Below, piece after piece: positions 1-21,775 of a DNA stretch of 64,000 bases. Made by a program: the position numbers and the translations under genes. The DNA is taken from assembly GCA_025617745.1 (NCBI GenBank), contig CM046853.1, positions 14,317,323 to 14,381,322 of the forward strand, written 5' to 3'. Under the pieces are notes generated by a model. It was not told the DNA's origin, searched no databases, and was given only the letters and a program-made list of their open reading frames with translations. The stretch is from Heliocidaris erythrogramma. Taxonomy: Eukaryota > Echinodermata > Echinoidea > Camarodonta > Echinometridae. The stretch's first letter is position 1; every line of letters starts with the position of its first letter.

Positions 1-2
1 GG

Positions 3-2219
3 GGCCTTTTATGTCCAGAGAGTGAAGTAGAACGACTTGAACATCCCAGAGAGAATGTAGATGTGGAAGATTGCGATGAAGATCTTGCTATTCCTGATTT
101 AAAGGACAAGCCAAAAAGTGATGATTACACCATAGAATTTAGATCTGTGAAAATTTCTAAACAGGATAGACATTCTATGATGAGGTCTTTGAACGAGAAG
201 CAAAGGATTGTCTTTTACAAAATACGACAGTGGTGTTTAGATAGAGTAAATGGAAAACTGGTTGAACCCTTTCATATTTTTATTACTGGTGGTGCTGGCA
301 CTGGAAAGAGTCATTTAGTGAAATGTATTTACTATGAAACAACACGCATACTAGCCCGAATGTTGCATAATCCTGATGATGTGTCAGTGTTGAAAATGGC
401 TCCTACTGGAGTAGCTGCATACAATATCAATGGTCATACTATACACAGTGTTCTTTCAATTCCAATTAGAGCTCAAATGCCTTATAAGCCACTCAGTGAA
501 GAGAAAATAAGTGTCCTCCGCAATAAGCTAGCTCAATTGCAAATTCTAATCATAGATGAAGTATCAATGGTAGATCAGAAGTTAATGTGTTACATCCACA
601 GTCGGCTACGACAAATAAAACAATCACGTGATCAGACTGCTTTTGCTGGTGTATCAGTTATTGCTGTAGGAGATATGTATCAGTTACCTCCTGTTTTTGG
701 AATTCCTTTATATAAAGACACAGTTCAAGGTGCATTGTGGAATGATAATTTCAAGAAAGTGGAACTTGATGACATAATGAGACAGAAAGATGATACTGAA
801 TTTGCCCTCCTCCTGAATAGATTACGTGTAAAAGAACGTGATGACATTCTCTGCGATGATGACCTAGCAATGCTAAAGGCTCGTGAAACTGGTGAAGTCT
901 TTGAAGATGATCTCCACATTTATTCATGTAACAAAGAAGTAGATGAATGGAACAAGAAATTATTGCATAAAAAATGTGCTAATGTAATATGTATAAAAGC
1001 AGAAGACACTGAGAAAGATGCCAAGAAAGAGAATAAAATTCGTGAAAAACCTTACACAGGGTGTAGAAGCCAGTTGCCTAGTTATCTGTGGATTGCAGTT
1101 AATGCGAGAGTCATGTTGCTGAAGAACATTGATGTTGGCAAAGGCCTGACAAATGGATGTTTTGGAAATGTAACTGAAATAGTAATGGATCAGACAAAGT
1201 CTAAACCAGTTTGCATCAAAGTTGATTTTGACAAAGGTAATGTTGGTATTCATTCAGTTGAAAAATCTGAAGAATTACTCGGTAAGAAATATTTAAGGCG
1301 ACAATTTCCACTTAAACTTGCTTATGCATGCACAATTCATAAAGTACAAGGTTTGACATTAAACAAAGCTGTGGTATCATTAAAAGGTATATTTGAATCT
1401 GGACAGGCATATGTTGGACTTAGTCGTGTTTGTTCATTATCTGGACTTGTTATAGAAAATTTTGATCCAAAACGTATACACTGTAATCCTGAAATCAAGC
1501 CAAGCATGGATATTATGAATGCATTTATTGAGAATATTACTGCTGAAGACATTGATGGATATACATGTAGCTCCTCTTTGATTTTACAAAATGTGCAAGG
1601 ATTAAGACAGCATTTTATGGATCTTCAATCCCAATGTCAATTTTTGAATGCAGATTTTATTTGCTTGACAGAAACATGGATTAATGATGATAATATCTCT
1701 GATGTTGTTATAGATAACTTTAGATTTTATCATCAGCCAAGAAATCTTTCATATTGTAAATATGGTGCTGCAAGCGAGTTTAAAGAACGATCACATGGAG
1801 GTGTTGGAATGTACATCAAGAACAGACATTCAAGTAGATTAAACATATCTGTTGACAACTTGGAGTTTATTGCAGTTCTTGTAACCAATCCTGTTTCTAT
1901 TGTTCTCTCAGTTGTATATCGACCTCCATCATATAATATGAAATCATTTTGTGAATGTCTGGACAATTTACTGAATGAATTAAATAAAAGAAGCATGAGA
2001 TGCATTGTGATGGGTGATTTCAATGAGGATTTATTTAAAGGTTCTTCACAAATATACCAGTTAATGTGTACAAAAGGTTACAAACAGCATGTTGTGAATG
2101 CTACTACTGAGAATGGAACATTGATAGATCATGTTTACAGCAAGGGATTAGAGTCATTCGAAACAGAAGTTGTCCCTACATACTACAGTTATCATGAAGC
2201 TGTTAAAATTATGTTTTAA
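3..2219 (+). CDS. Helentron (Helitron-type) PIF1-like helicase fused to an endonuclease domain; 5' end beyond window
   Basis: The frame is open from base 3, so the protein continues past the left edge; the upstream Rep/nuclease part is not visible. Counting from codon 63: a P-loop (GGAGTGKSH, about residue 77), Walker B (IIDEVSMVD, about 165), a GDMYQLPPV motif, a TIHKVQGLTL motif and AYVGLSR are all present, which is the PIF1/RecD-like SF1B helicase order. From about residue 500 an exonuclease-endonuclease-phosphatase domain follows (QNVQGLRQ, LTETW, VVYRPP, MGDFNEDL, IDHVYS). Helicase followed by this endonuclease is the layout known for helentrons, a rolling-circle DNA transposon group. 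The last motif reads SYH where SDH is usual in the wider endonuclease superfamily, so the catalytic Asp may be absent or this may be family-typical. No internal stop or frameshift is seen, so the copy may be young. It is a transposon gene, not a host helicase. Confidence 0.88.
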   Translation, partial: GLLCPESEVERLEHPRENVDVEDCDEDLAIPDLKDKPKSDDYTIEFRSVKISKQDRHSMMRSLNEKQRIVFYKIRQWCLDRVNGKLVEPFHIFITGGAGTGKSHLVKCIYYETTRILARMLHNPDDVSVLKMAPTGVAAYNINGHTIHSVLSIPIRAQMPYKPLSEEKISVLRNKLAQLQILIIDEVSMVDQKLMCYIHSRLRQIKQSRDQTAFAGVSVIAVGDMYQLPPVFGIPLYKDTVQGALWNDNFKKVELDDIMRQKDDTEFALLLNRLRVKERDDILCDDDLAMLKARETGEVFEDDLHIYSCNKEVDEWNKKLLHKKCANVICIKAEDTEKDAKKENKIREKPYTGCRSQLPSYLWIAVNARVMLLKNIDVGKGLTNGCFGNVTEIVMDQTKSKPVCIKVDFDKGNVGIHSVEKSEELLGKKYLRRQFPLKLAYACTIHKVQGLTLNKAVVSLKGIFESGQAYVGLSRVCSLSGLVIENFDPKRIHCNPEIKPSMDIMNAFIENITAEDIDGYTCSSSLILQNVQGLRQHFMDLQSQCQFLNADFICLTETWINDDNISDVVIDNFRFYHQPRNLSYCKYGAASEFKERSHGGVGMYIKNRHSSRLNISVDNLEFIAVLVTNPVSIVLSVVYRPPSYNMKSFCECLDNLLNELNKRSMRCIVMGDFNEDLFKGSSQIYQLMCTKGYKQHVVNATTENGTLIDHVYSKGLESFETEVVPTYYSYHEAVKIMF

Positions 2220-2299
2220 TAATTGTAAATTCAGATAAATATAACAGTAGATTTTGTGACATTAATTTAAATTTTGTAAAACTAAGCAAATACCAGTTA

Positions 2300-2560
2300 A
2301 AGAATCTATTTAAAAAAAAAGAATGTCATGAGATATAAAAAGAAAAGGGAAAAAGAATGAAGACAAAGGAAGAAAGAAAAGTATAGAGATAGAAAAAAGA
2401 AAGAATAGTACAGAGATAGAGACAAAAAAAAGAATAGTATATACAGATAGACAAAAACATAAAAGTAAGAAAAAGAAGGAGACAAAAAAAAAAAAAAAAA
2501 AAAAACATAAGAGATAGATAGAGAAAATAGAGTAGAAGAAAGAAAAAATAGCAGTAGCAG
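2300..2560. repeat. Purine-rich low-complexity tract after the helentron gene
   Basis: A run of A, GA and ATAGA motifs includes a long A stretch near 2486-2505. It follows the helentron stop codon by about 80 bases and may belong to the 3' part of the element. The element end is not identified. Apparent open frames on the minus strand here are only Phe/Leu/Ser strings produced by the composition. Confidence 0.6.
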
Positions 2561-3284
2561 TATCAGTACCAGTACCAGTCTTGTCATTGTAAATCATTGA
2601 GCTAATATGAATGTGTATGAATGGTGAAAACGTTCTGCAATAGATATTGTGGCAAATGAGATCACTGATATGATGATTCATGTCATGATGAACAAAAATG
2701 AACATACTATTTTGAACTGTAATACTTGATATGCTATGGAGATTTTACTTCTGAATTTTGCTTATAAAAATATTCAAAATGCATAATTGTAAAACAGGCA
2801 TACAATGCTTTTTAAAACTCTTTTTAACTTCTCAGATGACTTCTTAAGATGATTTTCACGTCACATATCACAACGTAAGTTCAGAAGTTTGTGAAATCCA
2901 AGGCAATGGGGAGAATATGTCCAACAAATCGTCAACTCCTTTTGGCAACATTCAACGAGACATGTTCCTGTCCTGGTGCCGCGAAAAAGGTGGAACGCGG
3001 ATCATCAAAATGTCTGTGTTGATGACGTCGCCATATCAGCGGATGCTACGTGGAAAGAGGCTTCTGGTGATAAGGTACCAGTTTAAAACTCAGAAATACA
3101 CTGCATAAAGTAAAATCACCATGTAACGCAAAAGGGAATGACCTCATGACACATGACCTTATATTCTTACACTTTTAAACTCACTGCCTTTTTTGTATAA
3201 GAAAAAATCCATTATTTTCAATTACTTTCATGTTATTTTGTTTTATGTGAATTATAACTATATGATATTCCTTATATTCATTAT

Positions 3285-3580
3285 TGTGTAATAATACACA
3301 CTGTATTGCTTAGATTTGTATCATGTCACTTGCGTAAATTTTGTTAAAGTAGACAATTGTGCCCTATAACTTTGATTTATGCACAGGGAATCCCATGCTA
3401 TAGAGGAATAGGGATATATGTATAATATGCACTGTGATTGGTTAGATTTGTATCATGTAAATTTCGAAAATTTTGTTATAGTGCATGATTGTGCACTATA
3501 ACTTTCATTTATGCACAAGAAATCCCATATTAAACGAATGGGGATGTATGTATAATACGCACTGTGATTTGTTAGATTAA
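3285..3580. repeat. Tandem repeat, period about 130 bp, two and a half diverged copies
   Basis: The phrases TTAGATTTGTATCATG, ATAACTTT.ATTTATGCACA and GTATAATA.GCACTGTGATT recur at about 3291, 3421 and 3551. The copies differ by scattered substitutions and small indels. No coding content is seen. Confidence 0.75.
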
Positions 3581-4357
3581 GGATCTACTTAGGCCTACTA
3601 TAACAAATAGTGCATGCACCATTACTGGACTATAGGAACTTGAAATACTAAATTATCGATTGTGCAACTCTATTTCATCTTGGTGTTTGGCCTCAGTGAA
3701 ACAAAACTGCACTTAGGATAATGTAGTATTTGTCTTGCACATAATGTATTTTAGTGCAGTATAATACATTATAGACCATGCACTATTCATGTATGATGTA
3801 CTCTTGTTTATGTTGTTGTACATGTCCAAACTGTATTAAAGACAGAACCAAACATATGTCAAGCCAAGAGCACATGTAGTTGTATACATAGGTGTAGAAT
3901 GTGGGGGGGGGGGGGGGGGGGGGGGGTGAGCTCAACAACCTGTAGACAATTTTAAAATTACCAAAATTATTTCATTCTATTTTTTAAAGCTCACTTGATA
4001 TTTGTTATTATTATCTATATAAGGCATTTTAGCCGCACATTAAAAACGCATATTTTAGTCTGCTTGATTTGCGCGTGCAATATGCTTTCATATTGCACGG
4101 AACACTGAATTCCCTATAGGCTACTGTACTAAACTTGCCATGCAATATTATGCCGTATTTTGTCTGGTCTGTTTGCGTGCACGCAAATAATGCAACGCAT
4201 ACACACATACGCACATGACATAATAAAGAGGTTAAGTCAAACTTGTGTGATCACAATGATGTATGAAGAGGGGCTGTATTAACTGAATGTAGTTGTTGAA
4301 ATGATTTTTATCAAGTTCTAAATCATTTTCCTGTGGGGTATAGATAATAAATATATT

Positions 4358-4491
4358 ATATTGGATGGCTCTGAATGGGATACCAGAGAATATTACACTC
4401 GTTAGGGCCAATATATACTCATCTTCGATTCGTGCAATATTGGCCCTAACTCGTGGAATATTCTGGTATCCCATTCAGAGCCATCCAATAT
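4358..4491. mobile_element. Palindromic MITE-like element, ATATTGGATGG ends, copy 1
   Basis: The left arm begins ATATTGGATGGCTCTGAAT and the right arm is its near-perfect inverse, ending CATCCAATAT, with a loop near 4425. Total about 134 bp. A related palindrome with the same outer ends lies at 45264-45419. The flanks are AT-rich, so a target duplication cannot be fixed. The lack of coding sequence and the full fold-back fit a non-autonomous DNA transposon. Confidence 0.7.
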
Positions 4492-6201
4492 AATATTATT
4501 ATCATTATTGTTGTTGTTATCGTTATAACTGTTATCATTGCTTGTACATGTAAATATGTTTTGAAACAGATGCATGAGATATTTCAATTAATTTGCTATT
4601 TATGTAATGAATCTTATGGGGCTAATCTTATTTAGCATATGCTCCCTTTATAAACATGTATGTATCATTGTGATTTTTACCCAAATTTGTGTATCATTGG
4701 GATGATGAGGCACTTCATCTTGACTGTTTAGGAAGGGGGGGGGGGGGAGCTGGTCAAATATATTACTGTACACATGCATGAAAAACAAAAAAACAAAAAG
4801 AGAAAAGGCAGGTATATGAAAAAGAAAGATAACTGTTCATGAACCAAGTCAGCAAAGGTATTTCAATGCAATACAGGATACACTTCCTGCTCCAGCCAAT
4901 CTCAAAATATGGACTATTCATGCACTTGGAAGTTATGCAGTGACCACATACAATAACGGAACAGTAATGTATATATTCAACTCTGCAAGTACACCTTTGC
5001 ATACTAGAAGGTACAATCAGAGACATACAGCACTCGGAAAGTTGGTACAAGGAAGACAACGATTACAAGAAGGAAACTTGTACAGCCATTGCTTTCAAGT
5101 CATTAAATTATAGCACCTGATACTGCAGTAATACTTGGAGGTTGCCAAGCAACAAGATACAATTCCAAACTTCAAGGACAGAAATGTTGTGTAAGATGAA
5201 GACAAACACATAGCGGTCTTCCTGCCAAAAATAATCAGCGCACGATATACTAGTATAGCAGATCTTATATACTCACCTTGAAGGAAAGTAGAAATAGTTA
5301 TTGAAGTTCGTGCAAAGGAGAAAAGGAAATTGAATGTAGAGGTTTCAGGAGTCACATATTGAGAATCTGCCTCAAATTATTTTGCCTGACAAAGATATTA
5401 GTACAGACATGGACTCTGTATGAAAGGCAGCTTTATAAGCTACATACACTCAGGCTAGCAACAAATAGCAAGTCACTACAAAGCTGTGAGCTAATTGCAT
5501 GATACACCATTGCCCTGTAGAAGACAACAAAGCAGAGATTCAAGAAGAACTACTTCAGAGATAGAGGCTAACTTCATACACCCTGTGACAAGTCATGTCT
5601 TGAATGGAGATTGCACTTTCTTCACCATGTTCCAGTGTGCATATCCTATCTTGTAGACCCCAGTCTTGGAGTCTCCAGGGTAAAGTAAAGGCATTGGCTT
5701 GGCACTGCAGTGTACTTACAGTGCACTTATATTCCTAGCCTCACAAATAATGACATAACTCACAGGTAGAGAAATGCATAACATATCCTGGCAGTGTCTG
5801 CAACTGTAGAAGAAGATTCCTAAGAACAAAGTGCTGAACCCACAGCTGCCCGTCCCAAGTTAAGCGGAAGGTCCAGTATATGTCCAAGAACTACAGAATT
5901 TACCTCAACCTGAGCTTCATATACCGTATGCACCATCGAGACTGTACACATTCTCATCAAACATCGATGTAGATCAGGATGTTGCCACACTTGATCATGG
6001 ATTTAATGCCTGCTCGTGCTAGTCAAAGTGCATGACATGTTTAAGGTATCATATAGGCTAAAACTCAGGGAAAATGTTATTTGTTTCTTCAGTTCGTTAA
6101 AAACATATTCTTTGTAGAGAATATGTTTCAGAGGATTAAAGGTTAGAGGGATTTGGAATACCTATAGTTATGTGTGTGTACAGTAGTATATTTCAACTGC
6201 A

Positions 6202-6219
6202 CCCCCCCCCCCCCCCCCC
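6202..6219. repeat. Poly-C run (18 bases)
   Basis: Uninterrupted cytosines, one of several long G/C homopolymers in this AT-rich window. Confidence 0.9.
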
Positions 6220-8211
6220 TCCTAGAAGAAGAATGTGATACTATTTGTACTTTTAGTTAATTGCATACATACTGGGAATTATCTTGGTGAAGACTTATCT
6301 CGCTGCCTTCATTTAAGTATTTTAATGAGAAAATGTATTTTTTTAATTATTTGTCCAACAGAATACTCCCTTTTTCATGGCACTTTCTACGTATTTTCTA
6401 CATATGAATACTACAATAACAAAAGATTTATTTACAATCATTTTATGTTTCTACTGCTAAAGAATTATCAAGATAATTTTCATTCTTTTATGACTTTTCA
6501 GCTTTTCTATTTTTTTTATTTTTTTTACACAGCTATGATATATTTATTTGATTTATGTTATATTTTTTCTTGCATTAATACCCTTGTTACATGCTGGTAG
6601 TAATATGAAAGTTGTTCAACAATTTTAAAACTTTGTTGGTTAATAGTTATAATATTTGTAATATGTGATATTTTGGAGCTTTGTACAAACACAGACATGT
6701 AACAAGCCAATTTTTACTTAGCTAGCTTCATTACTAATATCTAAAGGCTCTTTATTAGTTTATTTTTATCATTACATATGAGGGAGTGTAGCAACTGAGC
6801 AAGAACATTTTGGTTTATTTTTTAATAGTCAAACATTGTATTTTAGAGCATGTAAGCCAAATTCATAAGGCCTGTTGTAGTTTTCACTGTTTCAAATCTC
6901 CAACTGAACAGTCCTCTCAAAAGCCTCCTTACCACTTTTAAGAAGATTTCTATATGAGGAAACTAATAGTGTACATCATGATGCACATTATATCCTTGCT
7001 CTTGAAAGGTGATTGATATTATCAGTAAATAATTTCAAAACTGGTTATAGATTCTTGAGATTTGATGACTTCATTAGTGGAAATAAAAACAGGAGAGTCC
7101 TCCAAAATGTGATAAGTATTGAGTGATGGAACGATTATTCTAGTAAAATAGTAAGAAAAGAAACTTATGGTTCATTCAATTATACAGATTTTGTGCTGAA
7201 AAAAAAAAGGTTTCAGAGTCTGTAGGTGAATAATTTACATGAAAAGTGGCAATCTACCACTTAAATCTGTACACTTGACAAGTATGCAGTTGTCAATCAT
7301 TATAGCAGTGCGATCATGTTTCAGGATTTGTTTCTGACTTATTTGTCGAAAATCTTAATGTTTACATAAAACCTATAACTAAACTACAACTATTGAAGAG
7401 AAAGCGAATGGTGTTTTATGTACAGTGAAATAGTAACACTGTTAAAAGTTTTCAGAAATTTATATTGATATCTAGTGAAGTAAACCTTATGCCTCAGCTA
7501 TGGCTTGGCCTCATGAAATATACAATATACATACATGTATATGAAAGACAATAATTTACTCTCCAGAGCTCCTACTCTGGTTCATCTTTATTACAATTAA
7601 AATTATTATTAGAACATGAAGACCTGTATCATAAGATTATGTCTATTTAAAAAGACATTGAAAGTGGCTGTAAATTAAAAACAGACTAATGTGAGAAAAA
7701 CGGCTATAATTGTTTCAAACATCAAATTTGGCTTGTTCAGTATCATGTTAAAAAAAACCCCTTATATTATTATTGATAATCAGTTAGATTAAAATTGTGT
7801 TTGTGAAACACTTCCTTAACTTATTATTGAAATCAACCTAAATTCTTGTCATTAAAGAAGGTGTGGATTCTAAAATGCTCAATAATTAGTATCCAGTTTC
7901 TAACTTTACCAGATTTGGGGGGTTTTTTATTGAAAAAAACATTGAAAGATAGAGTTTTCTAGATTATTATGTTCTCTTTAAATAATAATGATTTATTTCA
8001 ACCATATACATATGCCATGAACAGTTCTTTACTAAGCAATTCTCGAAACCTATTTACTTCATTTAGTATCACTGATTACAACAATATGTTCCATGTGTCA
8101 TCTATTCTTTCAAGTTTTAACATGAAAATAAAGTTTGCCTTTGATTTGTTTCTCGTATATTAAAACCTTTGGGTATTATTTTAAGTCCCTTAGTATATCA
8201 TAAGATGCTCA

Positions 8212-8960
8212 TAAATGGTCATGGTAATAATCACAGAATCAGAGATGATAATAGTTGAAATGGTGATAATGATGGTGATAATGGTGATGGTGATCATAAT
8301 GATAGTTGGAATGGTGATAATGATTTGATGATGGTTGCGATGGTGGTGATGGTGGTTAGAATGGTGATACTGATGGAGATGACAGCACAGTTAGGATGAT
8401 GTTTGGAATGGTGATAATGATGGTGATGATTATAATGATGGCTGGAATGGTTGCAATGGTAATGAAGATGATGATGATGATGATTATGATGGTTGGAATG
8501 GTGATGATGGTTGAAATAGTGATGAAGATGGTGATGATGGTTGGAATGGTGATAATGATGGAGATAATGCTGATAATAAACGAAGAAGCTTGACTGGGGA
8601 GGAATTTTTAATTTGTAAACAAATCTGGGAGTAATATGCCGAAAGATTTGTTTACAAATACTGATAATGTTTGGCATGGTGATAACGATGGTGATTATGC
8701 TGGTGATAATGATAATGATGGAATAATAATTAATGATGATGATTGGAATGGTGATGATGATGGTTGGAATGATAGGTGATGATATGGAGATGATGGTGAT
8801 AATGATGATGACCATCATGGAATGGTGATAGTGATGGAGATAATGATGGTGATGATGATATTCGGAATGGTGATAATGATTATGATTATGGCAGTGATAA
8901 TGACGATGATGGTTGAAATGGTAATGATAGTGATGCTAATGGTTGAAATGGTGATAATTA
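8212..8960. repeat. Degenerate GAT/ATG microsatellite-like tract (about 750 bp)
   Basis: Dense repeats of GGTGATAATGATGGT, TGGAATGGTGAT and related phrases. Imperfect higher-order units built on TTGGAATGGTGATAATGATGG recur many times. The region yields long but meaningless His/Ile or Met-rich open frames. A perfect 16-bp-stem hairpin interrupts it at 8611-8659. Confidence 0.85.
8611..8659. repeat. Perfect hairpin interrupting the GAT tract
   Basis: ATTTGTAAACAAATCT at 8611-8626 is the exact inverse complement of AGATTTGTTTACAAAT at 8644-8659, leaving a 17-base loop. The surrounding 8578-8662 sequence lacks the GAT pattern, so it looks inserted. Confidence 0.8.
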
Positions 8961-9179
8961 TTTTTTTGATTTCAGCCTTTTCCTAGCATTTTCAATTCGT
9001 AGACTACTACCTATTTCCAGTGCCGTATATAGATAGAGTCTGGCCAACTCGGCTCCAGTTGGGTAACAACATGGCGCATATTCCTTTGTTGCAAGCTTAC
9101 ATACAAAGTGAAATAGCGCCTCTTTGGTCTCAATAGGGCATAAACCGTGTGAAAAATTAATTTTTGACGATTCGTGGAA

Positions 9180-9790
9180 AGATAAGGATGAAACAGACAA
9201 AAGGAGAGGTGAAAGAGGGAGAGAGGAATAAAGGAAAGGGAGAGAAGGGAGAGAAGAGACAGAGAAAAAGAAAAAAGACAGACAGATAAGAGAGTGATAG
9301 AGAAGTAAAGGAAAAAAGAGAGAGAGAGAGAGAGGAGTAAAGAAAAGGGAGAGAAGAGACAGATAGATAATAATAATACATGTGACTTGTATAGCGCACT
9401 TTCCATCCTGATTAGATGCTCAAGGCGCTCCAGAGCAAATTAATACACAAAGAATGAGAGGTAAAAATTATTAACACTGGACGAATAATGAATAGATAGA
9501 AAAAAGAGAGACAGATAGGAGAGTGATAGAGGAGTGAAGGAAAAAGGAGAGAAGAGAGAGGAGTAAAGGAAAGGGAGAGAAGAGACAGAAAAAGACAGAT
9601 AGGGAGTGATAGAAGAGTAAAGGAGAGAAGAGAGAGAGAGAGAGGAGTAAAGGAAAGGGACAAAAGAGAGAGAGAGAGAGAAGGAGACAGAGCTAGATAG
9701 GAGAGTGATAGAGGAGTAAAGGAAAAGGGAGAGCAGAGAGAGAGGAGTAAAGAAAGGGGAGAAAAAAGACAGAGAGAGGACAAAATGGAA
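9180..9790. repeat. GA-rich low-complexity tract with an inserted dispersed repeat
   Basis: The tract consists of GAGAGA, GGAGTAAAGGAAAAGG and GACAGATAG variants repeated irregularly, with the phrase GAGAGTGATAGAGGAGTAAAGG recurring. Between about 9365 and 9475 it is interrupted by TAATAATACATGTGACTTG and TATAGCGCACTTTCC and TGCTCAAGGCGCTCCAGAGC. This resembles the starts of the sequences at 34500 and 46610 (ATAA repeats, then a GCGC or GCTCAAGGC phrase), suggesting a shared dispersed family. Confidence 0.7.
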
Positions 9791-10402
9791 AAGAAACAAC
9801 TCAGATATTGCTCAAAGAGAATTCTAATGTAGATTGACGAGTGAAAAGAAATCACTTTCAATAGACATGACACGCAAATATCGAAAATTCTGACCTTGCT
9901 GATAATGAGGATAATGATGATGATGATAATGATAGGTGATAACCATGACTAAAATGACATTAACCTTAGCCATGCCAAATATGAAAGAGAGATGACATTT
10001 CGTGAAGAACATACGATCATAAGTTGATTTTTACAAAATGGCGCCTGGATGACGTCACAATAATCTGATGACCTTGATAAAGATGCGGGAACTTGACCTT
10101 ATTAGGACTGATGACTGACAAAAATTTGAAAATAATTGACTACGCCAATTTTGAGAAATTGTGATATCAAATAGGACTATTTAATATTGCAGGATACTTG
10201 GGAGATAAACCCCATAGCTCTAATACACGACAGGGAATCATAATTTCCATATAGGGTTGTACACAAACTACTGCACACTACTTTCTAATAGACATAACAC
10301 GGAAAATAAGGCAGTTTATTACATGGTTTGTGATTGTTCATGTTATAATAGAGGATGGTAAAATGACAGGCAAAAAGAAGCAAAAAAAAAAAAAAAATTT
10401 AT

Positions 10403-10467
10403 GGACCCACCGGGGATCGAACCTGGGTCACCGGAATCGGAGGCAAGTGCTTTGACCAATATACCAA
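10403..10467 (-). pseudogene. tRNA-like segment with A and B boxes (variant A, copy 1)
   Basis: On the minus strand an A-box match (TGGTATATTGG) is followed after about 32 bases by a B-box match (GGTTCGATCCC), then a short T-rich stretch. The whole loosely resembles tRNA-Gly. The anticodon and T stems do not pair fully and no acceptor stem is evident, so this is probably a tRNA-derived repeat part and not a working tRNA. Confidence 0.65.
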
Positions 10468-11732
10468 AATATTTCCCATAGAGATAACACGTAAACGAAG
10501 AACGGGATTATCAAATAACATTTTCTACTTAAAAATTGGGCATGATCCCGACGTCTGATCAAAAATTGGAGACCACACTTGTAAAAGCTTATAGTCTCAG
10601 CTACAACATATTAAAATCTGGAAGAAAAAAAGACCAAAAATAACTGAGATACTGCTCAGAGAACGATGTCATGTAGATTCATGATTCAAAAAAAGATCAT
10701 CTTCCATAGAGATAACACGCAAATAGGGAAAATTCTGACATGGCATTTTTAATTGAAAATATCACCGTGATGACGTCATCAAAATGAAAAATGGTGGTTA
10801 CTGGTCTGGTAGAGAATTGTGTCAGCTATAACATATCAAAATTTGAGAGAAAATCGACCACCTACTACTGAATTATTATCAAATGAATACCAAAATGATG
10901 ACGTCATTTTTTCAAAATCATTTTTTTGAGTTCATATGCAAATATGATGACGTCAGACCATGCGATCGGCAAAAATTCTGCATGAATTCAAATCTGCAAC
11001 TCCCAGGCTTTCAGAATATGTAAAGAAATTGGGGGGTTTCCTTGCATTCTGACGAGCTATGGCGGATTTTAGATAGGCATGTTTTTACCACTTTTTACAT
11101 TAGAATACCCATTGACGCGCGCACGAATTTGAAAGTTTGACGCATGCGTGTAGCATTATGGAAGGTCGAGAATGACTGTAAATAGTTGGAATTTGTCAAG
11201 AATAGTGTCAGGAAGACAAACCATGCGAAAAAACGGCGTTTTTACGTTATGTACGCGCTGCGCGCGCGCATAACGCGCACACGGACGCGCACGGACGGAA
11301 AAAATTTAAATGCTTAAAATGTCCTGAATCGTACTCTAATTTGATTAAAAAGTGATTTTGAGCATTTCTAAATTTTGACGCGCGCGTACGTGCGCGTCAT
11401 GATGTGTGCGCGAATTTTGATGACATTTTATGTTGACCCTTGACCTGAAGTTCATGTGTGTCAAATATGGTTCGTTTTTGATGACTCGTTATGAAGATAT
11501 GATTGATAATGTAATTTCACAAAATGGCGCCTGGATGACGTCATGATGACCTGATGACATTGAAAAAGATTTTGCAGCTTGACCTTATATGACCTGATGA
11601 CTGATAGAAATGTGATGAAAATTGACTGGAAAGTTTTAGAGATTTCGTGGAAACAAGAAAGTGGTAGAAAATAAAAATAAATAAATAATAATAAAGAAAT
11701 AAAGAAAGAAAGAAAATTCTGACGAATATAAG

Positions 11733-11825
11733 AGGTGATCTGTCGACTACGACAGATCACCTAATAATAATAAAGAAAATTCTGACGAAATTAAGAGGTG
11801 GTCTGTCGACTACGACAGACCACCT
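11733..11825. repeat. Two perfect hairpins at an array-unit boundary
   Basis: AGGTGATCTGTCG pairs with CGACAGATCACCT at 11733-11762, and AGGTGGTCTGTCG with CGACAGACCACCT at 11796-11825. Both are preceded by TCTGACGAA and AT-rich text. The A-to-G change in the second is matched in both arms, so the hairpins kept pairing while diverging. Confidence 0.85.
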
Positions 11826-12348
11826 AATAATAAACTAGATTTTAATTCGTCATGAGGACGAATTAGGTGGTCTGTCTTTCAATTTGTACGATCATGATTG
11901 TAATCAGGATGATCATAATAATGGGGAAATGCTAAACTGAAGATAGGATGTCAAGAAATGCCATGAATGGAGATGCTTCTTGAGGACAAGAATGTAGCAA
12001 AATGTGTAACTGTCACTGTAAAACGATTATGGTGAAGATGATAATGGTGATTATGATGATTATAATGATATAATGATGATGGCGATGGATATAATAATAG
12101 CGATGATGATCATGACGGTGATGATGATACAGGATACTTGGGAGATTAACCCCATAGCTCTAATACAGGACAGGAAATCACAATTTCCATAAGGTTGTAC
12201 ACAAACTACTGCACATTACTTTCTAATAGACATAACATGGAAAATAAGGCAGTTTATTACATGATTTGTGATTGTTTATGTTATAATAGTCGAAGAGGAT
12301 GGTAAAATGACAGGCAAAAAGAAGCAAAAAAAAAAAAAAAAAAAAAAA

Positions 12349-12412
12349 TCGGCCCCGGGGATCGAACCAGGTACCTTGACCATGGTAGTCATGTGCTTTA
12401 CCGATAGACTAA
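12349..12412 (-). pseudogene. tRNA-like segment (variant B, copy 1)
   Basis: Minus strand: A-box TAGTCTATCGG, B-box GGTTCGATCCC, then CGGGGCCGA and a T run of more than 20 bases that would terminate RNA polymerase III. The middle differs from variant A (ATGACTACCATGGTCAAGG). Confidence 0.65.
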
Positions 12413-14660
12413 AATATTTCCCATAGAGATAACACGTAAACGAAAAACAGGATTCTCGAATCCCATTTGGTAGTTCAAAATAGGGCATGATCCCGACATC
12501 TGATCAAAATTTGGAGACCACCTTACTGAAAGCTTATAGTCTCAGCTACAACATATTAAAATCTGGAAGGAAATAGACCAAAAATAACTGAGATACAGCT
12601 CAGAGAACGATGTCATGTAGATTCATGATTCGAAAAAAAATCATCTTCCATAGACATAACACGCAAATAGGGACAATTCTGACATGTCGTCTTTAATTGA
12701 AAATTTCAGTGTGATGACGTCATCCAAATGAATAATAATGAGCACTCATGTTGTAGAGAATTGTCTCAGCTATAACATATCGAAATCTGGGCGAAAAACT
12801 ACCAATAATAAAGAATCTAGAGCCAAATTTGCATGAATGTGATGACGTCAAAACATGAAAAATGGAAATTTTGAATTCCGGCGCCATTTTGATGACGTCA
12901 TAATGTATATAAGGGTCAAATGATACATGAAATGAAATCTATGATTTATACCCTACCTGATGATGAAAAAAAATTGGGAGGTTTCTGGACTATTTAAAGA
13001 GCTAGAGTTAATTTTGTAGAGGCATGTTTTTCACGTTTTTACGTTATTTTTGCCATAGACGCGCGCACGGATTTTGAAATTTGACGCGCGCGTGTGGCAT
13101 TATGGAAGGTCGATATTGACTGTAAATAGTTGGAAATTGTCAAGAATAGTGTCAGGAAGACGTAACATGCGAAAAAACAGCGTTTTTACGTTCTCTACGC
13201 GCTGCGTGCGCGCATAACACGCGCACGGACGCGCACGGACGGAAAATTTTTAAATGCTTAAAATGTCCTGAACAATACTCTAATTTGATTAAAAAGTGAT
13301 TTTGACCATTTTTAAATTTTGACGCGCGCGTACGTGCGCGTCATGATGTGCGCGCGGATTTTGATGACATTTTATGTCGACCCTTGACCTGAATTTAATG
13401 TATGTCAAATATGGTTCATTTTTGATGACTCGTTATGAAGATATGATTGATAATGTGATTTCACAAAATGGCGCCTGGATGACGTCACGATGACCTGATG
13501 ACCTTGAAATAGATACCCGACCTTGATCTGATATGTCCTGATGACTGTAGAGATTTTGATAAAAATTGACTCAGCCGATATTGAGGAATCATGGTAACAA
13601 GAAAGTGGTGGAAAAATAAAAATAAATAATAAACTAGAAATTTAATTCGTCATGAGGACGAATTAGGTGGTCTGTCTTTCAATTTGTATGATCATGATTG
13701 TAATCAAGATGATCATAATAATGGGGAAATACTAAACTGAAGATAGGATGTCAAGAATGCCATGAATGGAGATGCTTCTTGAGGACATCATAATGATGAT
13801 GGTGATAATGATGATAATGATTGGGATAATGGTGATGACCATGACTGCAATGACAGTGACCTTAACCATGCCAAATATGAAAGAGAAATCACATTTCGTT
13901 ATGAAGATACAACCATAAGTTGATTTGTACAAAATGGCGCCTAGATGATGTCACGATAACCTGATGACCATGAAAAAGATGTGGGAACTTGACCTTATTA
14001 GGACCGATGACTGACGAAAATTTGAAGATAATTGAGTAAGCCAATTTTGAGAAATTGTGATATCAAATAGGATTAATGATATTGCAGGATAACTTTAATA
14101 CACTTCAGGAATTCAGATTTTCCATAAGGTTATACATAAACTACTGCACACTACTTTCTAACAGACATAACATGCAAAATAAGGCATTTGATCAAAAATT
14201 GGAGACCACACTTATAAAAGCTTATAGTCTGAGCTATAACATACTAAAATCTGGAAGAAAATAGATCCAAAACAACTGAGATACAGCTCAGAGAACAATG
14301 TCATGTAGATTCATGATTTAAAAAAAAAAGGTCATCTTCCATAGACATACAACACGCAAATAGGGAAAATTCTGACATGGCATATTTAATTGAAAATTTC
14401 ACTATAATGACGTCATCAAAATGAAAAATGGTGGTGACCGGTTTTGCAGGAAATTGCCTCAGCTACAACATATTAAAATCTGGGCGAAAAACGACCAATA
14501 ATTACGAATCTAGAGCCAAATTTGTATAAATGTGATGACGTCAAAACATGAAAAATGGAAATTTTGAATTCTGGCGCCATTTTGATGACGTCATAATGTT
14601 TATCAGGGTCAAATGATACATGAAATGACATCCATGATTCATACCCTACCTGATGATGAT

Positions 14661-14682
14661 GGGGGGGGGGGGGGGGGGGGGG
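14661..14682. repeat. Poly-G run (about 22 bases) inside array unit 3
   Basis: Follows ACCTGATGATGAT where other units have a short A or G run. It is a local expansion specific to this unit. Confidence 0.85.
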
Positions 14683-15523
14683 AGGAGTTGTCAACGGGCT
14701 ATCTAACGAGCTACAGTGAATTTTGTATAGGCATGTTTTTGCCCATATATGGCCTATAGTGAGGGATGACGCCCGCGCGTGCTGCAAACTTTGACGGACG
14801 ATAATTTCCTTATTAATTGTCGTAGAAAGATAGAAAAGGTATCAAATTGCTCAGAATTTTGTGTTCTATAAGAGTACACAAGAAAAAATGGCGATTTTAG
14901 GCTCTGTCATGGTGGAATACGGGAAAACGCGCACGCACCCGTGTACGCGCGCAAATTTTTGAAATGCTCAAAATGACCTGAAACGTGTGCAGACTTGATC
15001 CTACGTGATTTTGAGCATTTTTAAATTTTGACGCGCGCGTACGCGCACGTCCTGACCTTTAGATGACCTGTGAGGACGTGACTTGATGACCCGTCATGTG
15101 AACTTCATGTGATGCGAATATAGTTGATTTTTGATGATCGATTATGAAGATATAATCGATCTTGTAAATTTACAAAATGGCGTCTTGATGACGTCACGAT
15201 GACATGATGACCTTGTGCTTTTCACAGTCAAGTTTTCGTACAAAATTTTATGGCTGTGCCAAATTTCAAAAAGATTGAAGATTTAGTTTTTAAGTATTGG
15301 GCCTAGCAAAAAATAGTGGTTTTGGTGGTTTTTGGAGAATTAATATGAAATTTCCCATTTTTTCATTTGTCAATGGGAGGAAAATAAGGAAAAATGTGAA
15401 GAATCTTTAAATTGGAAGTAAAATGGTCCATCATTTCCTGCAAAGTTCAAAAAAAAATTTCGTTGTAGATGGCAGGATGGAGGAGGTATTAAGGAAAAGA
15501 TGGACAAGAAAACGACGTCTACA

Positions 15524-15555
<32 letters not shown>

Positions 15556-15998
15556 TAATTGAGCTACGAATCTGCTTTTTTGTGTGCATGATGTTTGGTC
15601 AAGATGTGATGATTGTGGAAGGATTCAGAAAGATCGACCAACTTGTTTAGGAGTTATCGGGGTTGGCATTTTTCATTGTTGTGCGCGCACTGACGCGCGA
15701 ACATAAGCGTACGCGCGCGTCTAATTTTCTGAAATTGACCGGATCAGTATTAGCTTTAATCCTGCCAAATATGAGTGAGAAATGACTTTCCGTTATGAAG
15801 ATATGACCATGAACTAATACACGACAGGGAATCAAAATTTCCATAGGGTTGTACACAAACTACTGGAGACTACTTTCCAATAGACATAACATGCAAAATA
15901 AGGCAGTTTATTGCATGGTTTGTGATTGTGTATGTTATAATAGTCGAACAAGATCGTAAAATGAAAGGCAAAAAGAAGCAAAAAAATTTTTTTTTAAT

Positions 15999-16063
15999 GG
16001 ACGCACCGGGGATCGAACCTGGGTCACCGGAATGGGAGGCAAGTGCTTTGACCAATACACCAA
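15999..16063 (-). pseudogene. tRNA-like segment (variant A, copy 2)
   Basis: Close to the 10403 copy. The A-box region reads TGGTGTATTGG and the B-box GGTTCGATCCC. On the plus strand it is preceded by an A-run then a T-run instead of a pure A-run. Confidence 0.65.
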
Positions 16064-17318
16064 AGTATTTCCCATAGAGGTAACACGTAAACGAAAAACG
16101 GGATTCCCAAATCCCATTTGGTAGTTCAAAATTGGGCATGATCCCGACATCTGATCAAAAATTGGAGACCACACTTGTAAAAGCTTATAGTCTCAGCTAC
16201 AACATATTAAAATCTGGAAGGAAATAGACCAACAATAACTGAGATACTGCTCAGAGAACAATGTCATGTAGATTCATGATTCGAAAAAAGTTCAACTTCC
16301 ATAGACATAACACGCAAATAGGGAACATTCTGACATGGCGTCTTTAATTGAAAATTTCACTATGATGCCGTCATCAAAATGAAAAATGCTGGTTCCTGAT
16401 CTGGTAGAGAATTGTCTCAGCTATAACATATCAAAGTTTGGAAGAAAATCGACTACCTATTACTGAAATATTATCACATGAACACAAAAATGATGACGTC
16501 ATTCTTTCCAAAATGAGAGTTTTGAGTTGATAGGCAGATACGATGCCGTTAGAACATGAGATCGGCAAAAATTCTACATGAATTCAAATCCACAACTCAC
16601 AGGCTTCCAGAATATGTAGAGGAATTTGAGGGTATCCGTGCATTCTGACGAGCTATGGCGAATTCTAGATAGGCATGTTTTTACCACTTTTTACATTAGA
16701 ATGCCCATTGACGCGCCCACGTAATTGAAAATTTGACGCGCGCGTGTGGCCTTATGGAAGGTCGAGAATGGCTGTAAATAGTTGGAAATTGTCAACAATA
16801 GTGTCAGCAAGACAAACCATGCGAAAAAACGGCGTTTTTATTTTCCGTACGCGCTGCGCGCGCGTATAACGCGAGGACAAACGCGCACGGACGGAAAATT
16901 TTGAAATGCTCAAAATGTCCTGAACCATACTCTAATTTGATTAAAAAGTGATTTTGAGCATTTTTAAATTTTGACGCGCGCGTTACGTGCGCGTCATGAT
17001 GCGTGCGCAGATTTTGATGGCATTTTATGTTGACCCTTGACCTGAAGTTCATGTGTGTCAAATATGGTTCATTTTTGATGACTCGTTATGAAGATATGAT
17101 TGATAATGTGATTTCACAAAATGGCGCCTGGATGACGTCACGATGACCTGATGACCTTGAAATAGATACCCGAGCTTGATCTGATAGGTCCTCATGACTG
17201 TAGAGATTTTGATGAAAATTGACTCAGCCGATATTGAGGAATCATGGTAACAAGAAAGTGGTGGAAAAATAAAAATAAAGAATAAAGAATAAAGAAAGAA
17301 AATTCTGACGAAATTAAA

Positions 17319-17345
17319 AGGTGATCTGTCGTTGACAGACCACCT
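17319..17345. repeat. Imperfect boundary hairpin
   Basis: AGGTGATCTGTC, GTT loop, GACAGACCACCT. One arm carries the GATC form and the other the GACC form, so one pair is a G-T type mismatch. It lies directly before unit 5. Confidence 0.75.
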
Positions 17346-19423
17346 AACTAGAGTTTAATTCGTCATGACGAATTAGGTGATCTGTCTTTCACTTTGTACG
17401 ATCATGATTGTAATCAGGATGATCATAATAATGGGGAAATGCTAAACTGAAGATAGGAAGTCAAGAATGCCATGAATGGAGATGCTTCTTGAGGACAGGA
17501 ATGTAGCAAAATGTGTGAAACGGTCATTGTAAAAAGATTACGGTGATGATGATAATGGTGATGATGATGAAGATGATAATATAATGATGATGGTTATAAT
17601 GATTATGATGATATAATGATGGTGATGATAATGATGATTATTGATGATGTGATATTCGTGATGATTATGGTGTTGGTGATTTTGAAGATGATTGATGATA
17701 TAATGATGATAATGATAATGATGATAATGATGGGGATAATGGTAATGATCATGACTGCAATGACAGTGACGTTAACCATGCCAAATATGAACGAGAAATC
17801 ACATTTCGTTATGAAGATACGACCATAAGTTGATTTGTAGAAAATGGCGTCTAGATGACGTCACAATAAGATAATTAAGATAATTGACTAAGCCAATTTT
17901 GAGAAATTGTGATATCTAATAGGACTAATGATATTGTAGGATAGCTTTAATACACGTCAGTGAAACAGATTTTCCATAGGGATATACATAAACCACTGCA
18001 CAGCACTTTGCAATAGACATAACATGCAAAATAAGCATTTTATTACTTGGTTTGTGATTGTTTATGTTATAATAGTCGTAGAGGATGGTAAAATGACAAG
18101 TAAAAAGAAGCAAAAAAAAAAAAAAAAAAAAAAATCGGCCCCGGGGATCGAACCAGGTACCTTGACCATGGTAGTCATGTGCTTTACCGATAGACCAAAA
18201 TATTTCCCATAGAGATAACACGTAAACGAAAAACGTGATTCTCAAATCCCATTTGGTACTGAAAAATTGGGCATGATCCCGACATCTGATCAAAAATTGG
18301 AGGGCTTACTAATAAAAGCTTATAGTCTCAGCTACAACATATTAAAATCTGGAAGGAAATAGACCAAAAATAACTGAGATACTGCTCAGAGAACGATGTC
18401 ATGTAGATTCATGATTCGAAAAAAAATCATCTTCCATAGACATAACACGCAAATAGGGAAAAATTTGACATGTCGTCTTTAATTGAAGATTTCAGTGTGA
18501 TGACGTCATCAAAATGAATAATGGTGGCAAGATGTCTCGTAGAGAATTGTTGCAGCTATAACATATCAAAATTTGGGAGAAAAACGACCAATAATGACGA
18601 ATCTGGAGCCAAATTTGCATACATGTGATGACGTCAAAACATGAAAAATGGAAATTTTGACTTCTGGCGCCATTTTGATGACGTTATAATGTTTATAAGG
18701 ATGAAATGATACATGAAATGAAATCTATGATTCATACCCTACCTGATGATGACAAAAAAATTGGGGGTCAACGGACTATCTAACGAGCTACAATGAATTT
18801 TGTAGAGGCATGTTTTTGCACGTTTTTACGTTATTTTCGCCATAGACGCGCGCACGGATTTCGAACTTTGACGCGCCCGTACGACCTTATTATTGATTGA
18901 AATTGATTCAAATTGATGGAAATGATGAAGAAAAGTGTCAGGATTGCAAATCAATAAAAAAAACAGCGTTCTAACGTTATTTACGATTTGTGCGCGCGTA
19001 AAACGCGCGCGCGGACGCTTACGCACGGACATTTTTGAAATGCTCAAACTGACCTGAAACGTGTGCAGACTTGATCCTACGTGATTTTGAGCATTTTAAA
19101 ATTTTGACGCGCGCGTACGCGTACGTCCTGACCTCTAGATGACCTGTGAGGACATGACGTGATGACCCGTCATGTGAAGTTTATGTGATGTAAATATAGT
19201 TGATTTTTGATGATCGATTATGAAGATATAATCGATCTTGTAAATTTACAAAATGGCGTCTTGATGACGTCATGATAACCTGATGACCTTGAATGAGATG
19301 CCACATCTTGACATTGACCAGTCTGATAAGTGACGAAAATTTGAAGAAAATTGAGAATGAAATTTTTGAGGAATCATGGTAACAAGAAAATGGGCGAAAA
19401 ATAAAAATAAATAATAAATAATA
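17346..19423. repeat. Array unit 5 (near-identical to unit 6)
   Basis: Begins ACTAGAGTTTAATTCGTCAT, then AATTAGGTGATCTGTC. It runs through the GAT tract (17540-17740), tRNA-like block (18135-18199), TGACGTCA sites, CpG-rich part (18840-19110) and an ATAAATAATA end. It differs from unit 6 by isolated substitutions and in A-run length. Confidence 0.85.
18135..18199 (-). pseudogene. tRNA-like segment (variant B, copy 2)
   Basis: A-box TGGTCTATCGG and B-box GGTTCGATCCC on the minus strand, followed by a long T run. Same as the copy in the next array unit. Confidence 0.65.
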
Positions 19424-21500
19424 ACTAGAGTTTAATTCGTCATGACGAATTAGGTGATCTGTCTTTCACTTTGTACGATCATGATTGTAATCAGGATGAT
19501 CATAATAATGGGGAAATGCTAAACTGAAGATAGGAAGTCAAGAATGCCATGAATGGAGATGCTTCTTGAGGACAGGAATGTAGCAAAATGTGTGAAACGG
19601 TCATTGTAAAAAGATTACGGTGATGATGATAATGGTGATGATGATGAAGATGATAATATAATGATGATGGTTATAATGATTATGATGATATAATGATGGT
19701 GATGATAATGATGATTATTGATGATGTGATATTCATGATGATTATGGTGTTGGTGATTTTGAAGATGATTGATGATATAATGATGATAATCATAATGATG
19801 ATAATGATGGGGATAATGGTAATGATCATGACTGCAATGACAGTGACCTTAACCATGCCAAATATGAACGAGAAATCACATTTCGTTATGAAGATACGAC
19901 CATAAGTTGATTTGTAGAAAATGGCGTCTAGATGACGTCACAATAAGATAATTAAGATAATTGACTAAGCCAATTTTGAGAAATTGTGATATCTAATAGG
20001 ACTAATGATATTGTAGGATAGCTTTAATACACGTCAGTGAAACAGATTTTCCAGAGGGATATACATAAACCACTGCACAGCACTTTGCAATAGACATAAC
20101 ATGCAAAATAAGGCATTTTATTACTTGGTTTGTGATTGTTTATGTTATAATAGTCGTAGAGGATGGTAAAATGACAAGTAAAAAGAAGCAAAAAAAAAAA
20201 AAAAAAAAAAATCGGCCCCGGGGATCGAACCAGGTACCTTGACCATGGTAGTCATGTGCTTTACCGATAGACCAAAATATTTCCCATAGAGATAACACGT
20301 AAACGAAAAACGTGATTCTCAAATCCCATTTGGTACTGAAAAATTGGGCATGATCCCGACATCTGATCAAAAATTGGAGGGCTTACTAATAAAAGCTTAT
20401 AGTCTCAGCTACAACATATTAAAATCTGGAAGGAAATAGACCAAAAATAACTGAGATACTGCTCAGAGAACGATGTCATGTAGATTCATGATTCGAAAAA
20501 ATATCGTCTTCCATAGACATAACACGCAAATAGGGAAAAATTTGACATGTCGTCTTTAATTGAAGATTTCAGTGTGATGACGTCATCAAAATGAATAATG
20601 GTGGCAGGATGTCTCGTAGAGAATTGTTGCAGCTATAACATATCAAAATTTGGGAGAAAAACGACCAATAATTACGAATCTAGAGCCAAATTTGCATAAA
20701 TGTGATGACGTCAAAACATGAAAAATGGAAATTTTGACTTCAGGCGCCATTTTGATGACGTCATAATGTATATAAGGATGAAATGATACATGAAATGAAA
20801 TCTATGATTCATACCCTACCTGATGATGACAAAAAATTTGGGGGTCAACGGACTATCTAACGAGCTACAATGAATTTTGTAGAGGCATGTTTTTGCACGT
20901 TTTTACGTTATTTTCGCCATAGACGCGCGCACGGATTTCGAACTTTAACGCGCCCGTACGATCTTATTATTGATTGAAATTGATTCCAAATTGATGGAAA
21001 TGATGAAGAAAGGTGTCAGGATTGCAAATCAATAAAAAAAACAGCGTTCTAACGTTATTTACGATTTGTGCGCGCGTAAAACGCGCGCGCGGACGCTTAC
21101 GCACGGACATTTTTGAAATGCTCAAAATGACCTGAAACGTGTGCAGACTTGATCCTACGTGATTTTGAGCATTTTAAAATTTTGACGCGCGCGTACGCGT
21201 ACGTCCTGACCTCTAGATGACCTGTGAGGACATGACCTGATGACCCGTCATGTGAAGTTTATGTGATGTAAATATAGTTGATTTTTGATGATCGATTATG
21301 AAGATATAATCGATCTTGTAAATTTACAAAATGGCGTCTTGATGACGTCATGATAAACTGATGACCTTGAATGAGATGCCACATCTTAACATTAACATGT
21401 CTGATCAGTGACGAAAATTTGAAGAAAATTGAGAATGAACTTTTTGAGAAATCATGGTAACAAGAAAATGGGCGAAAAATAAAAATAAATAAATAATAAT
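19424..21500. repeat. Array unit 6 (near-identical to unit 5)
   Basis: Same order of blocks as unit 5. The tRNA-like block is at 20212-20276 and the CpG-rich part at about 20920-21200. It is followed by a four-fold cluster of hairpins (21530-21775), after which the repeat pattern stops. Confidence 0.85.
20212..20276 (-). pseudogene. tRNA-like segment (variant B, copy 3)
   Basis: Same A-box, spacer, B-box and T-run as at 18135-18199; only the T-run length differs. Not a credible functional tRNA because no acceptor stem can be drawn. Confidence 0.65.
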
Positions 21501-21529
21501 AATAAATAATAATAATAAATAAAGAAGAA

Positions 21530-21775
21530 AAATCTTGACGAAATTAAGAGGTGATCTGTCGATGTACGACAGATCACCTAATAATAAAGAAGAAAAATCT
21601 TGACGAAATTAAGAGGTGATCTGTCGATGTACGACAGATCACCTAATAAAGAAAATTCTGACGAAATCAAGAGGTGGTCTGTCGACTACGACAGACCACC
21701 TAATAATAAATAAAGAAGAAAAATCTTGACGAAATTAAGAGGTGATCTGTCGATGTACGACAGATCACCTAATTA
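21530..21775. repeat. Cluster of four hairpins ending the array
   Basis: 31-base or 30-base palindromes at 21549-21579, 21614-21644, 21672-21701 and 21740-21770, each preceded by TTGACGAAATTAAG or a variant. Three carry AGGTGATCTGTCGATG and one AGGTGGTCTGTCGAC, with the matching change in the other arm. Unique sequence starts right after. Confidence 0.9.

What the first reader, a model, noticed from the sequence alone, without database searches (positions are those of the whole stretch)
9880..21775. 12-kb array of 2-kb units loaded with TGACGTCA palindromes
About two dozen exact TGACGTCA sites were counted by eye (for example near 10051, 10780, 10886, 10935, 11534, 12713, 12841, 12892, 14534, 15187, 18499, 19934, 20704, 21344). 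Fewer than one is expected by chance in 12 kb. They sit at fixed places in each unit, several kept across diverged units. TGACGTCA is the full CRE recognised by CREB/ATF bZIP factors. The array could act as a factor sink or enhancer cluster, or the sites may be internal transposon signals.
Basis: partly seen in the sequence, partly recalled or inferred. Interest (0 to 1): 0.7.

Follow-up and report, generated by a model that had tools for sequence, protein, structure and literature searches.

The report
Jumping gene's repeated tail with CREs
The TGACGTCA sites sit in the repeated non-coding tail of a large, recently active rolling-circle jumping gene; they multiplied with that tail, and some are better kept than their surroundings, which hints that the jumping gene uses a host gene-switch signal for itself.

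Summary
In detail: 24 exact TGACGTCA lie in 9880-21775 (0.23 expected), in six ~2-kb units at recurring spacings. The units are the 3' end of a Helentron (endonuclease-bearing Helitron) followed by tandem copies of its non-autonomous (HINE-type) form. Its genes run from upstream into the window: OTU protease, Rep, Pif1 helicase, C-terminal endonuclease. Units show HINE anatomy: 5' hairpin with subterminal repeat, microsatellite, body, 3' palindrome. Listed matches lie on 16 of 26 contigs. TGACGTCA is multiplied because each unit carries up to five slots. Between 11 subfamily consensuses, the four testable slots are better kept than nearby bases (p=0.00014), but not significantly among recent copies (p=0.12), and a tree-based count is weaker (p=0.08 overall, 0.02 against flanks). 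That suggests, but does not prove, use by the source elements, for example as CREB/ATF-driven promoter sites. Closest precedents: Caenorhabditis Helitrons with heat-shock elements, Drosophila ISX. A host enhancer cluster or factor sink is not supported. No binding or expression data; species unnamed; the 5' end was not reached. New member of a known kind.

The parts
63..2219 (+). 3' part of the Rep/helicase/endonuclease ORF of the Helentron; the same frame is open back through the window's start into L037:4806-7931 (Rep part)
   Evidence: Pfam PIF1 1.1e-27, Exo_endo_phos 7.6e-12; upstream Helitron_like_N 6.4e-32 and DUF6570; frame continuity; 98.8-99.3% identical, no new stops, in the 7 other copies fetched
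2220..9899 (+). non-coding middle of the element, with GA-rich and ATG/ATA microsatellites near its right end; no TGACGTCA
   Evidence: 1-4000 recurs at 92-98% and 4001-8200 mostly at 91-95%; TRF; site list
9900..11833 (+). unit 1: 3' end of the gene-bearing element, five CRE slots, ends in two palindromes
11834..13632 (+). unit 2: starts with the 5' end ACTAGA..TTAATTCGTC..GACGAATTAGGTG; 3' palindrome missing (inner truncated copy)
13633..15813 (+). unit 3: 5' end at ~13633, internal deletion, irregular right part
15814..17346 (+). unit 4: body without its own 5' end, ends in a palindrome at 17319
17347..19423 (+). unit 5: 5' end, microsatellite, body; 3' palindrome missing
19424..21772 (+). 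unit 6: 5' end to the 3' end of the whole array, with four palindromes at 21549-21770
21720..21775 (+). terminal 3' palindrome AGGTGATCTGTCG..CGACAGATCACCTAA
   Evidence: DNA fold -15.7 kcal/mol, z -8.2; 20 of 21 outer 3' ends are followed by 150 bp that match neither the element nor each other
11834..11882 (+). 5' terminal hairpin: subterminal inverted repeat and its complement
   Evidence: z -4.0; 9 of 48 such starts are preceded by sequence that does not match the element
10050..10057 (.). CRE slot 1 of unit 1 (others at 17856, 19933; one mismatch at 13946)
10771..10955 (.). CRE slots 2, 3, 4 of unit 1 at 10771, 10899, 10948 (same slots in other units)
11521..11543 (.). CRE slot 5 of unit 1 with the adjoining AAAATGGCG; the best conserved slot
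   Evidence: exact in 64 of 64 copies; zero changes on the tree

Best explanation
The array is the 3' end of a large autonomous Helentron (unit 1) followed head to tail by five shorter copies of its non-autonomous form, most likely made by rolling-circle replication that ran past, or lost, the 3' palindrome. TGACGTCA is abundant because each ~2-kb unit holds up to five copies and the units were multiplied and spread, often several at a time. Shown: Helentron gene set, HINE-type ends of the units, tandem structure, dispersal, recent copying, and better conservation of the sites between subfamilies. Inferred: the sites are kept because the transposon uses them, most likely as CREB/ATF (bZIP) sites in a promoter or enhancer that drives transcription of the element, often beside an AAAATGGCG motif; once a copy has inserted, its sites decay much like the rest.
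For: Pfam domains of a Helentron on one strand and in order, Rep and helicase in one open frame; subterminal inverted repeat, 5' hairpin, microsatellite and 3' palindrome as described for Helentron/HINE. The same layout (OTU ORF, helicase ORF, middle, CRE array) at a second place, C10:28070-53900. OTU region: 20 other full-length matches at 97-100%, 40 of 86 candidates scored. [quoted passage not shown] Site conservation: column identity 0.96 vs 0.85 in 20-bp flanks; p=0.00014 versus local flanks between 11 cluster consensuses; slot 5 exact in 64 of 64; two haplotypes around slots 3-4 are 52.5% identical over 120 columns yet 20 of 20 inside the two GATGACGTCA. AAAATGGCG or its complement: 15 in the region against 0.17 expected, 14 of 15 beginning 11 or 15 bp before a CRE slot.
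Against: No expression, binding or chromatin data. Conservation is uneven: on a tree of 64 copies slots 3 and 4 change at about the average rate (48th and 55th percentile), overall p=0.08; within the recent 38-copy cluster p=0.12. Other blocks are equally conserved (for example a 24-bp and a 20-bp block without CRE). The two GATGACGTCA may have helped anchor the alignment. Units recombine, so clusters are not fully independent. Slot 1 was not in the tested alignment. The array is at the 3' end, kilobases downstream of the genes, an odd place for a promoter. The 5' end of the gene-bearing element was not reached (a 5'-end search, scored 40 of 1518 candidates and listed none just upstream of the window's copy), and no empty site was shown.
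Confidence: 0.5

Rival explanations
1. Passive passengers: the units belong to a Helentron, but TGACGTCA is only ancestral sequence multiplied by duplication and gene conversion, with no use to the element.
For: Slot 1 and slot 5 lie in copies of one ~170-bp piece (10000-10170 vs 11486-11656), so part of the count is plain duplication; recent copies show no significant constraint; tree-based test p=0.08; non-CRE blocks are as well conserved.
Against: Subfamily-level excess conservation relative to flanks, p=0.00014; 20 of 20 identical inside versus 52.5% outside at slots 3-4; slot 5 exact in 64 of 64.
Confidence: 0.33
2. Host silencing target: ATF-2-type bZIP proteins that bind TGACGTCA recruit heterochromatin to the array, so the sites mark the transposon for repression (ATF-2/Atf1 silencing is recalled, not tested).
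For: Site type and array form only; indirect.
Against: A transposon would be expected to lose, not keep, sites that silence it; no chromatin data here.
Confidence: 0.07
3. Transposase or replication signals: the palindromes are bound by the element's own Rep or endonuclease rather than by a host factor.
For: The sites are palindromic, at recurring spacing, inside the mobile unit; slot 5 with AAAATGGCG is the best kept.
Against: Published cis-signals of Helitrons/Helentrons are the terminal repeats and hairpin (passages), which are separately present here; the 8-bp palindromes are internal and mutate individually.
Confidence: 0.08
4. Host enhancer cluster or factor sink selected by the host at this locus.
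For: Density of sites only.
Against: The same units lie on 16 of 26 contigs in the listed matches and have transposon ends; recent copies show no significant constraint.
Confidence: 0.02

Closest known systems
Helentrons and HINEs (Thomas, Vadnagara, Pritham 2014, PMC4067079; passages seen)
   Same: Rep/helicase with C-terminal endonuclease, OTU protease, subterminal inverted repeats, 3' palindrome, non-autonomous partners with microsatellites or tandem repeats; Helentron proteins or DINE-1-like elements reported in sea urchin and molluscs among others
   Different: The tandem units here are ~2 kb and carry up to five CREs each; from the OTU ORF to the array's end it spans about 29.5 kb (about 19.6 kb to the end of unit 1), 5' end not reached
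Cg_HINE elements with satellite-like central repeats, Pacific oyster (PMC7492417; passages seen)
   Same: 5' subTIR, complementary inverted repeat, microsatellite, repeats, 3' subTIR and palindrome; dispersed short arrays
   Different: The main oyster repeats are 140-180 bp; here ~2-kb units, most with their own 5' end, are repeated
Caenorhabditis Helitrons carrying heat-shock elements (PMC6927752; passages seen)
   Same: Helitron carrying many copies of a host stress-factor site; there the transposase mRNA rises on heat shock, HSF-1-dependently in C. elegans
   Different: Different factor (HSF-1), with measured binding; here the site is CRE and function is untested
ISX/ISXR helitrons with MSL recognition motifs, Drosophila miranda (PMC4384637; passages seen)
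   Same: Helitron-type element spreading a protein-binding motif, with gene conversion among copies
   Different: Motif adopted by the host for dosage compensation; no such sign here
Helraiser, bat Helitron (PMC4778049; passages seen)
   Same: 3' hairpin as termination signal, head-to-tail circles, read-through
   Different: Canonical Helitron ends (5' TC, 3' CTAG), not Helentron ends

Membership tests
Helentron (autonomous) | HUH Rep domain (Helitron_like_N) | tested here: met
   L037:4806-7931, PF14214 6.4e-32
Helentron (autonomous) | Pif1-type helicase in the same ORF | tested here: met
   PF05970 1.1e-27; frame open from L037 into the window
Helentron (autonomous) | C-terminal AP-type endonuclease | tested here: met
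   PF03372 7.6e-12 at residues 510-699 of 718
Helentron (autonomous) | OTU cysteine protease (frequent, not required) | tested here: met
   PF02338 3.6e-11; region recurs upstream of other helicase copies, for example C5, C8, C10, C16, C18
Helentron (autonomous) | 5' subterminal inverted repeat at the gene-bearing element's own 5' end | tested here: inconclusive
Helentron/HINE | 3' palindrome near the end | tested here: met
   z -8.2 and -9.6; 20 of 21 outer ends in 18 fetched loci plus window pass into unrelated sequence; L017 and L020 show no outer end, L011 passes into a unit piece
HINE | 5' subTIR plus complementary inverted repeat, then microsatellite | tested here: met
Helentron/HINE | insertion in T-rich sequence without target site duplication | tested here: inconclusive
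   flanks look A/T-rich by eye but no empty site was compared
Canonical Helitron | 5' TC and 3' CTRR ends | tested here: not met
   5' ends mostly read ACTAGA, 3' ends CACCTAA
CREB/ATF-bound regulatory array | exact CRE in numbers above chance | tested here: met
   24 vs 0.23
CREB/ATF-bound regulatory array | factor binding or regulated transcription | not testable with these tools
   no ChIP, ATAC or RNA data available

The most novel reading that the evidence does not exclude
The CRE-bearing units are an enhancer that works across the head-to-tail junction: in the transposon's circular or concatemeric form the 3' array lies directly before the 5' end of the genes, so joining the ends would switch on Rep/helicase transcription under CREB/ATF (cAMP or stress) control, and tandem amplification would strengthen it.
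Probability: 0.1. Interest if true: 0.75.

Novelty: new member of a known kind. Interest (0 to 1): 0.42.

Why it matters
It explains a striking motif cluster as transposon anatomy, and it may be a further case, beside heat-shock elements and MSL sites, of Helitron-type elements multiplying a host factor site. With many dispersed sites (296 in the 253 kb examined), such elements could wire CREB/ATF responsiveness across this genome, and whether they do can be tested directly.

Tried and rejected
Rfam scan of the window: no family at gathering score. ARAGORN: no tRNA in the window, although units hold a tRNA-B-box-like block on the minus strand (B box recalled). A host enhancer cluster was rejected because the units are dispersed and have transposon ends. 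Canonical Helitron was rejected on the ends. AP-1 (2 vs 1.67 expected), E-box (0 vs 1.89) and octamer (4 vs 1.88, maximum 6 in shuffles) are not enriched, and TATAAA-like motifs are depleted (3 vs 10.7). Literature: Helitron + 'transcription factor binding' + CREB gave 2 papers, listing only, neither on CREs in Helitrons by its listing; TGACGTCA + transposable element + tandem repeat gave 3 papers, listing only, none on this by listing. Absence from print is claimed only for these searches. A notebook line says all 24 sites read GATGACGTCA; one search shows 23 of 24.

Dropped rows: the conservation alignment used 64 unit copies that met a length cut among 185 profile hits, and columns with at least 70% occupancy; the tests then used columns with at least 85% occupancy or at least 9 of 11 clusters. 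Slot 1 lies outside that alignment, so only four of five slots were tested. The 20 loci were chosen from the better matches. The 7 copies are the best-scoring others (37 candidates scored there).

Full report
Observation. The window holds 27 exact TGACGTCA, 24 of them in 9880-21775, against 0.23 expected from dinucleotide shuffles. Six units of about 2 kb, 71-88% identical in long alignments, make up the array. Spacings between sites recur (128, 588, 50/49 bp).

What it is. A search of the window's own genome (1.06 Gb, 26 contigs, unnamed) with one unit gave 161 matching pieces, a lower bound because only 38 of 4656 candidates were scored; listed pieces lie on 16 of 26 contigs. The 20 loci fetched with flanks, chosen from these matches, each hold two or more unit copies. 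Arrays end at the same place, a palindrome AGGTGATCTGTCG...CGACAGATCACCTAA: of 21 outer ends in 18 loci plus the window, 20 are followed by 150 bp that match neither the element nor each other; the one in L011 passes into a piece of a unit; L017 and L020 show no outer end in the stretch held. Units begin with (A)CTAGA...TTAATTCGTC, a hairpin formed with GACGAATTA. Of 48 such starts, 39 follow another unit and 9 (in L009, L012, L013, L019, L023, L024, L025, L027, L028) follow sequence that does not match the element. Both ends fold as hairpins. These are transposon ends.

Which transposon. Window 63-2219 encodes a Pif1 helicase with a C-terminal endonuclease. Upstream DNA (L037) continues the same open frame with DUF6570 and the Helitron Rep domain, and has a separate ORF with an OTU protease and a second, Herpes_teg_N-type domain. 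This is a Helentron gene set. The helicase/endonuclease ORF is 98.8-99.3% identical in the 7 other copies fetched, without new stop codons; other listed copies of the first 2.3 kb are at 92-98% and were not checked for stops. The OTU region has 20 other full-length matches at 97-100%, with 40 of 86 candidates scored. So the family was active recently. Window 1-4000 recurs at 92-98% and 4001-8200 mostly at 91-95%, with more distant relatives down to about 70%. At C10:28070-53900 the OTU region, the helicase ORF, the middle and a CRE array follow each other as in the window. At C18:15535411 the middle runs into an array that ends in palindromes (L010), though one search lists no helicase match there. 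So genes, middle and first unit are one element: about 19.6 kb from the OTU ORF to the end of unit 1, about 29.5 kb to the end of the array. Its 5' end was not reached. Such length is not new: Helitrons up to 39 kb are reported in maize (PMC6431247, passage).

Tandem structure. In 27 loci plus the first 24 kb of the window, 17 unit junctions show a palindrome before the next 5' end and 33 do not. [quoted passage not shown] Rolling-circle concatenation is therefore the likely origin; it is inferred. The 40 listed copies of one 5'-end variant are all about 100% identical over 216 bp (40 of 1518 candidates scored), another sign of recent copying.

The sites. 23 of 24 window sites, and 290 of 296 in 27 loci plus the first 24 kb of the window, are preceded by GA. 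Slots 1 and 5 lie in copies of one ~170-bp piece. AAAATGGCG or its complement, resembling a YY1 site (recalled), occurs 15 times against 0.17 expected, 14 of 15 beginning 11 or 15 bp before a CRE slot, two of those slots having one mismatch. Of 64 unit copies, slot 5 is exact in 64, slot 2 in 55, slot 3 in 53, slot 4 in 46.

Are the sites conserved beyond their surroundings? For: as 8-mers weighted over 11 clusters, p=0.002; between cluster consensuses p=0.014 overall and 0.00014 relative to local flanks; two haplotypes around slots 3-4 agree at 52.5% of 120 columns outside and at 20 of 20 columns inside the two GATGACGTCA. Against: on a 64-copy tree the four slots together give p=0.08, or 0.02 relative to flanks, with slots 3 and 4 near average; recent copies p=0.12; other blocks are equally conserved. 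The simplest reading is constraint in the source elements and decay after insertion. That fits use by the transposon rather than by the host at this locus, but few independent lineages, recombination and possible alignment anchoring limit the force of it.

Mechanism proposed. Helitrons of Caenorhabditis carry heat-shock elements, and the C. elegans Helitron transposase mRNA rises on heat shock in an HSF-1-dependent manner (PMC6927752, passages). By analogy, CREB/ATF sites may drive transcription of this Helentron. The position at the 3' end is unexpected for a promoter; in a circle or concatemer it would lie before the 5' end of the genes, which is the bold reading given separately. Neither was tested.

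Verdict. The array is ordinary in kind (Helentron with HINE tandem units) and, as far as the few searches made here show, not described with multiplied CREs. The genome-wide pattern count (not completed), the 5' end and an empty site remain open.

Noticed in passing
window 45895, 46268, 46378: Three more TGACGTCA outside the array; the last two sit in similar sequence 110 bp apart next to GCATGCGC; no alignment to the units was listed there.
   Followed up: partly
window ~10405-10480 and the same place in other units that hold it: A block GGGATCGAACC, the complement of a tRNA B box (recalled), beside an A run: looks like a tRNA-derived piece on the minus strand; ARAGORN finds no tRNA; block invariant in cluster consensuses.
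   Followed up: partly
L037:200-4219: One ORF carries both an OTU protease domain and a Herpes_teg_N domain.
   Followed up: no
L038:1453-1849: Cysteine-rich, PHD-finger-like open frames just before the OTU ORF, judged by eye only.
   Followed up: no
L008:126-640, L010:7731-8190, window 21549-21770: The 3' palindrome is itself repeated in tandem (eight copies in L008) with a period of about 63 bp in the window.
   Followed up: partly
G000:C9:7135865-7136751 and C14:121861-122741: Stretches of ~880 bp reported as 100% identical to the start of the window's unit 2, a sign of very recent copying or gene conversion.
   Followed up: no
G000:C4:56393711-56425615, C21:9722118-9741539, C1:72623903-72642678 and similar: A second Helentron lineage, ~93% identical in the genes but only 70-84% in the non-coding parts; whether its tail carries CREs was not examined and would be a good test.
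   Followed up: no
window 48007-49684 (-): Two ORFs with reverse transcriptase domain (RVT_1); a further RT-like ORF at 30176-30879 (-) by eye.
   Followed up: no
window 56784-57764: Separate tandem array with ~151-170 bp units.
   Followed up: no
window, inside the units near 11376, 13320, 15029, 16972, 19105, 21183: AATTTTGACGCGCGCGTACG block, one of the longest invariant blocks in the unit, meaning unknown.
   Followed up: no
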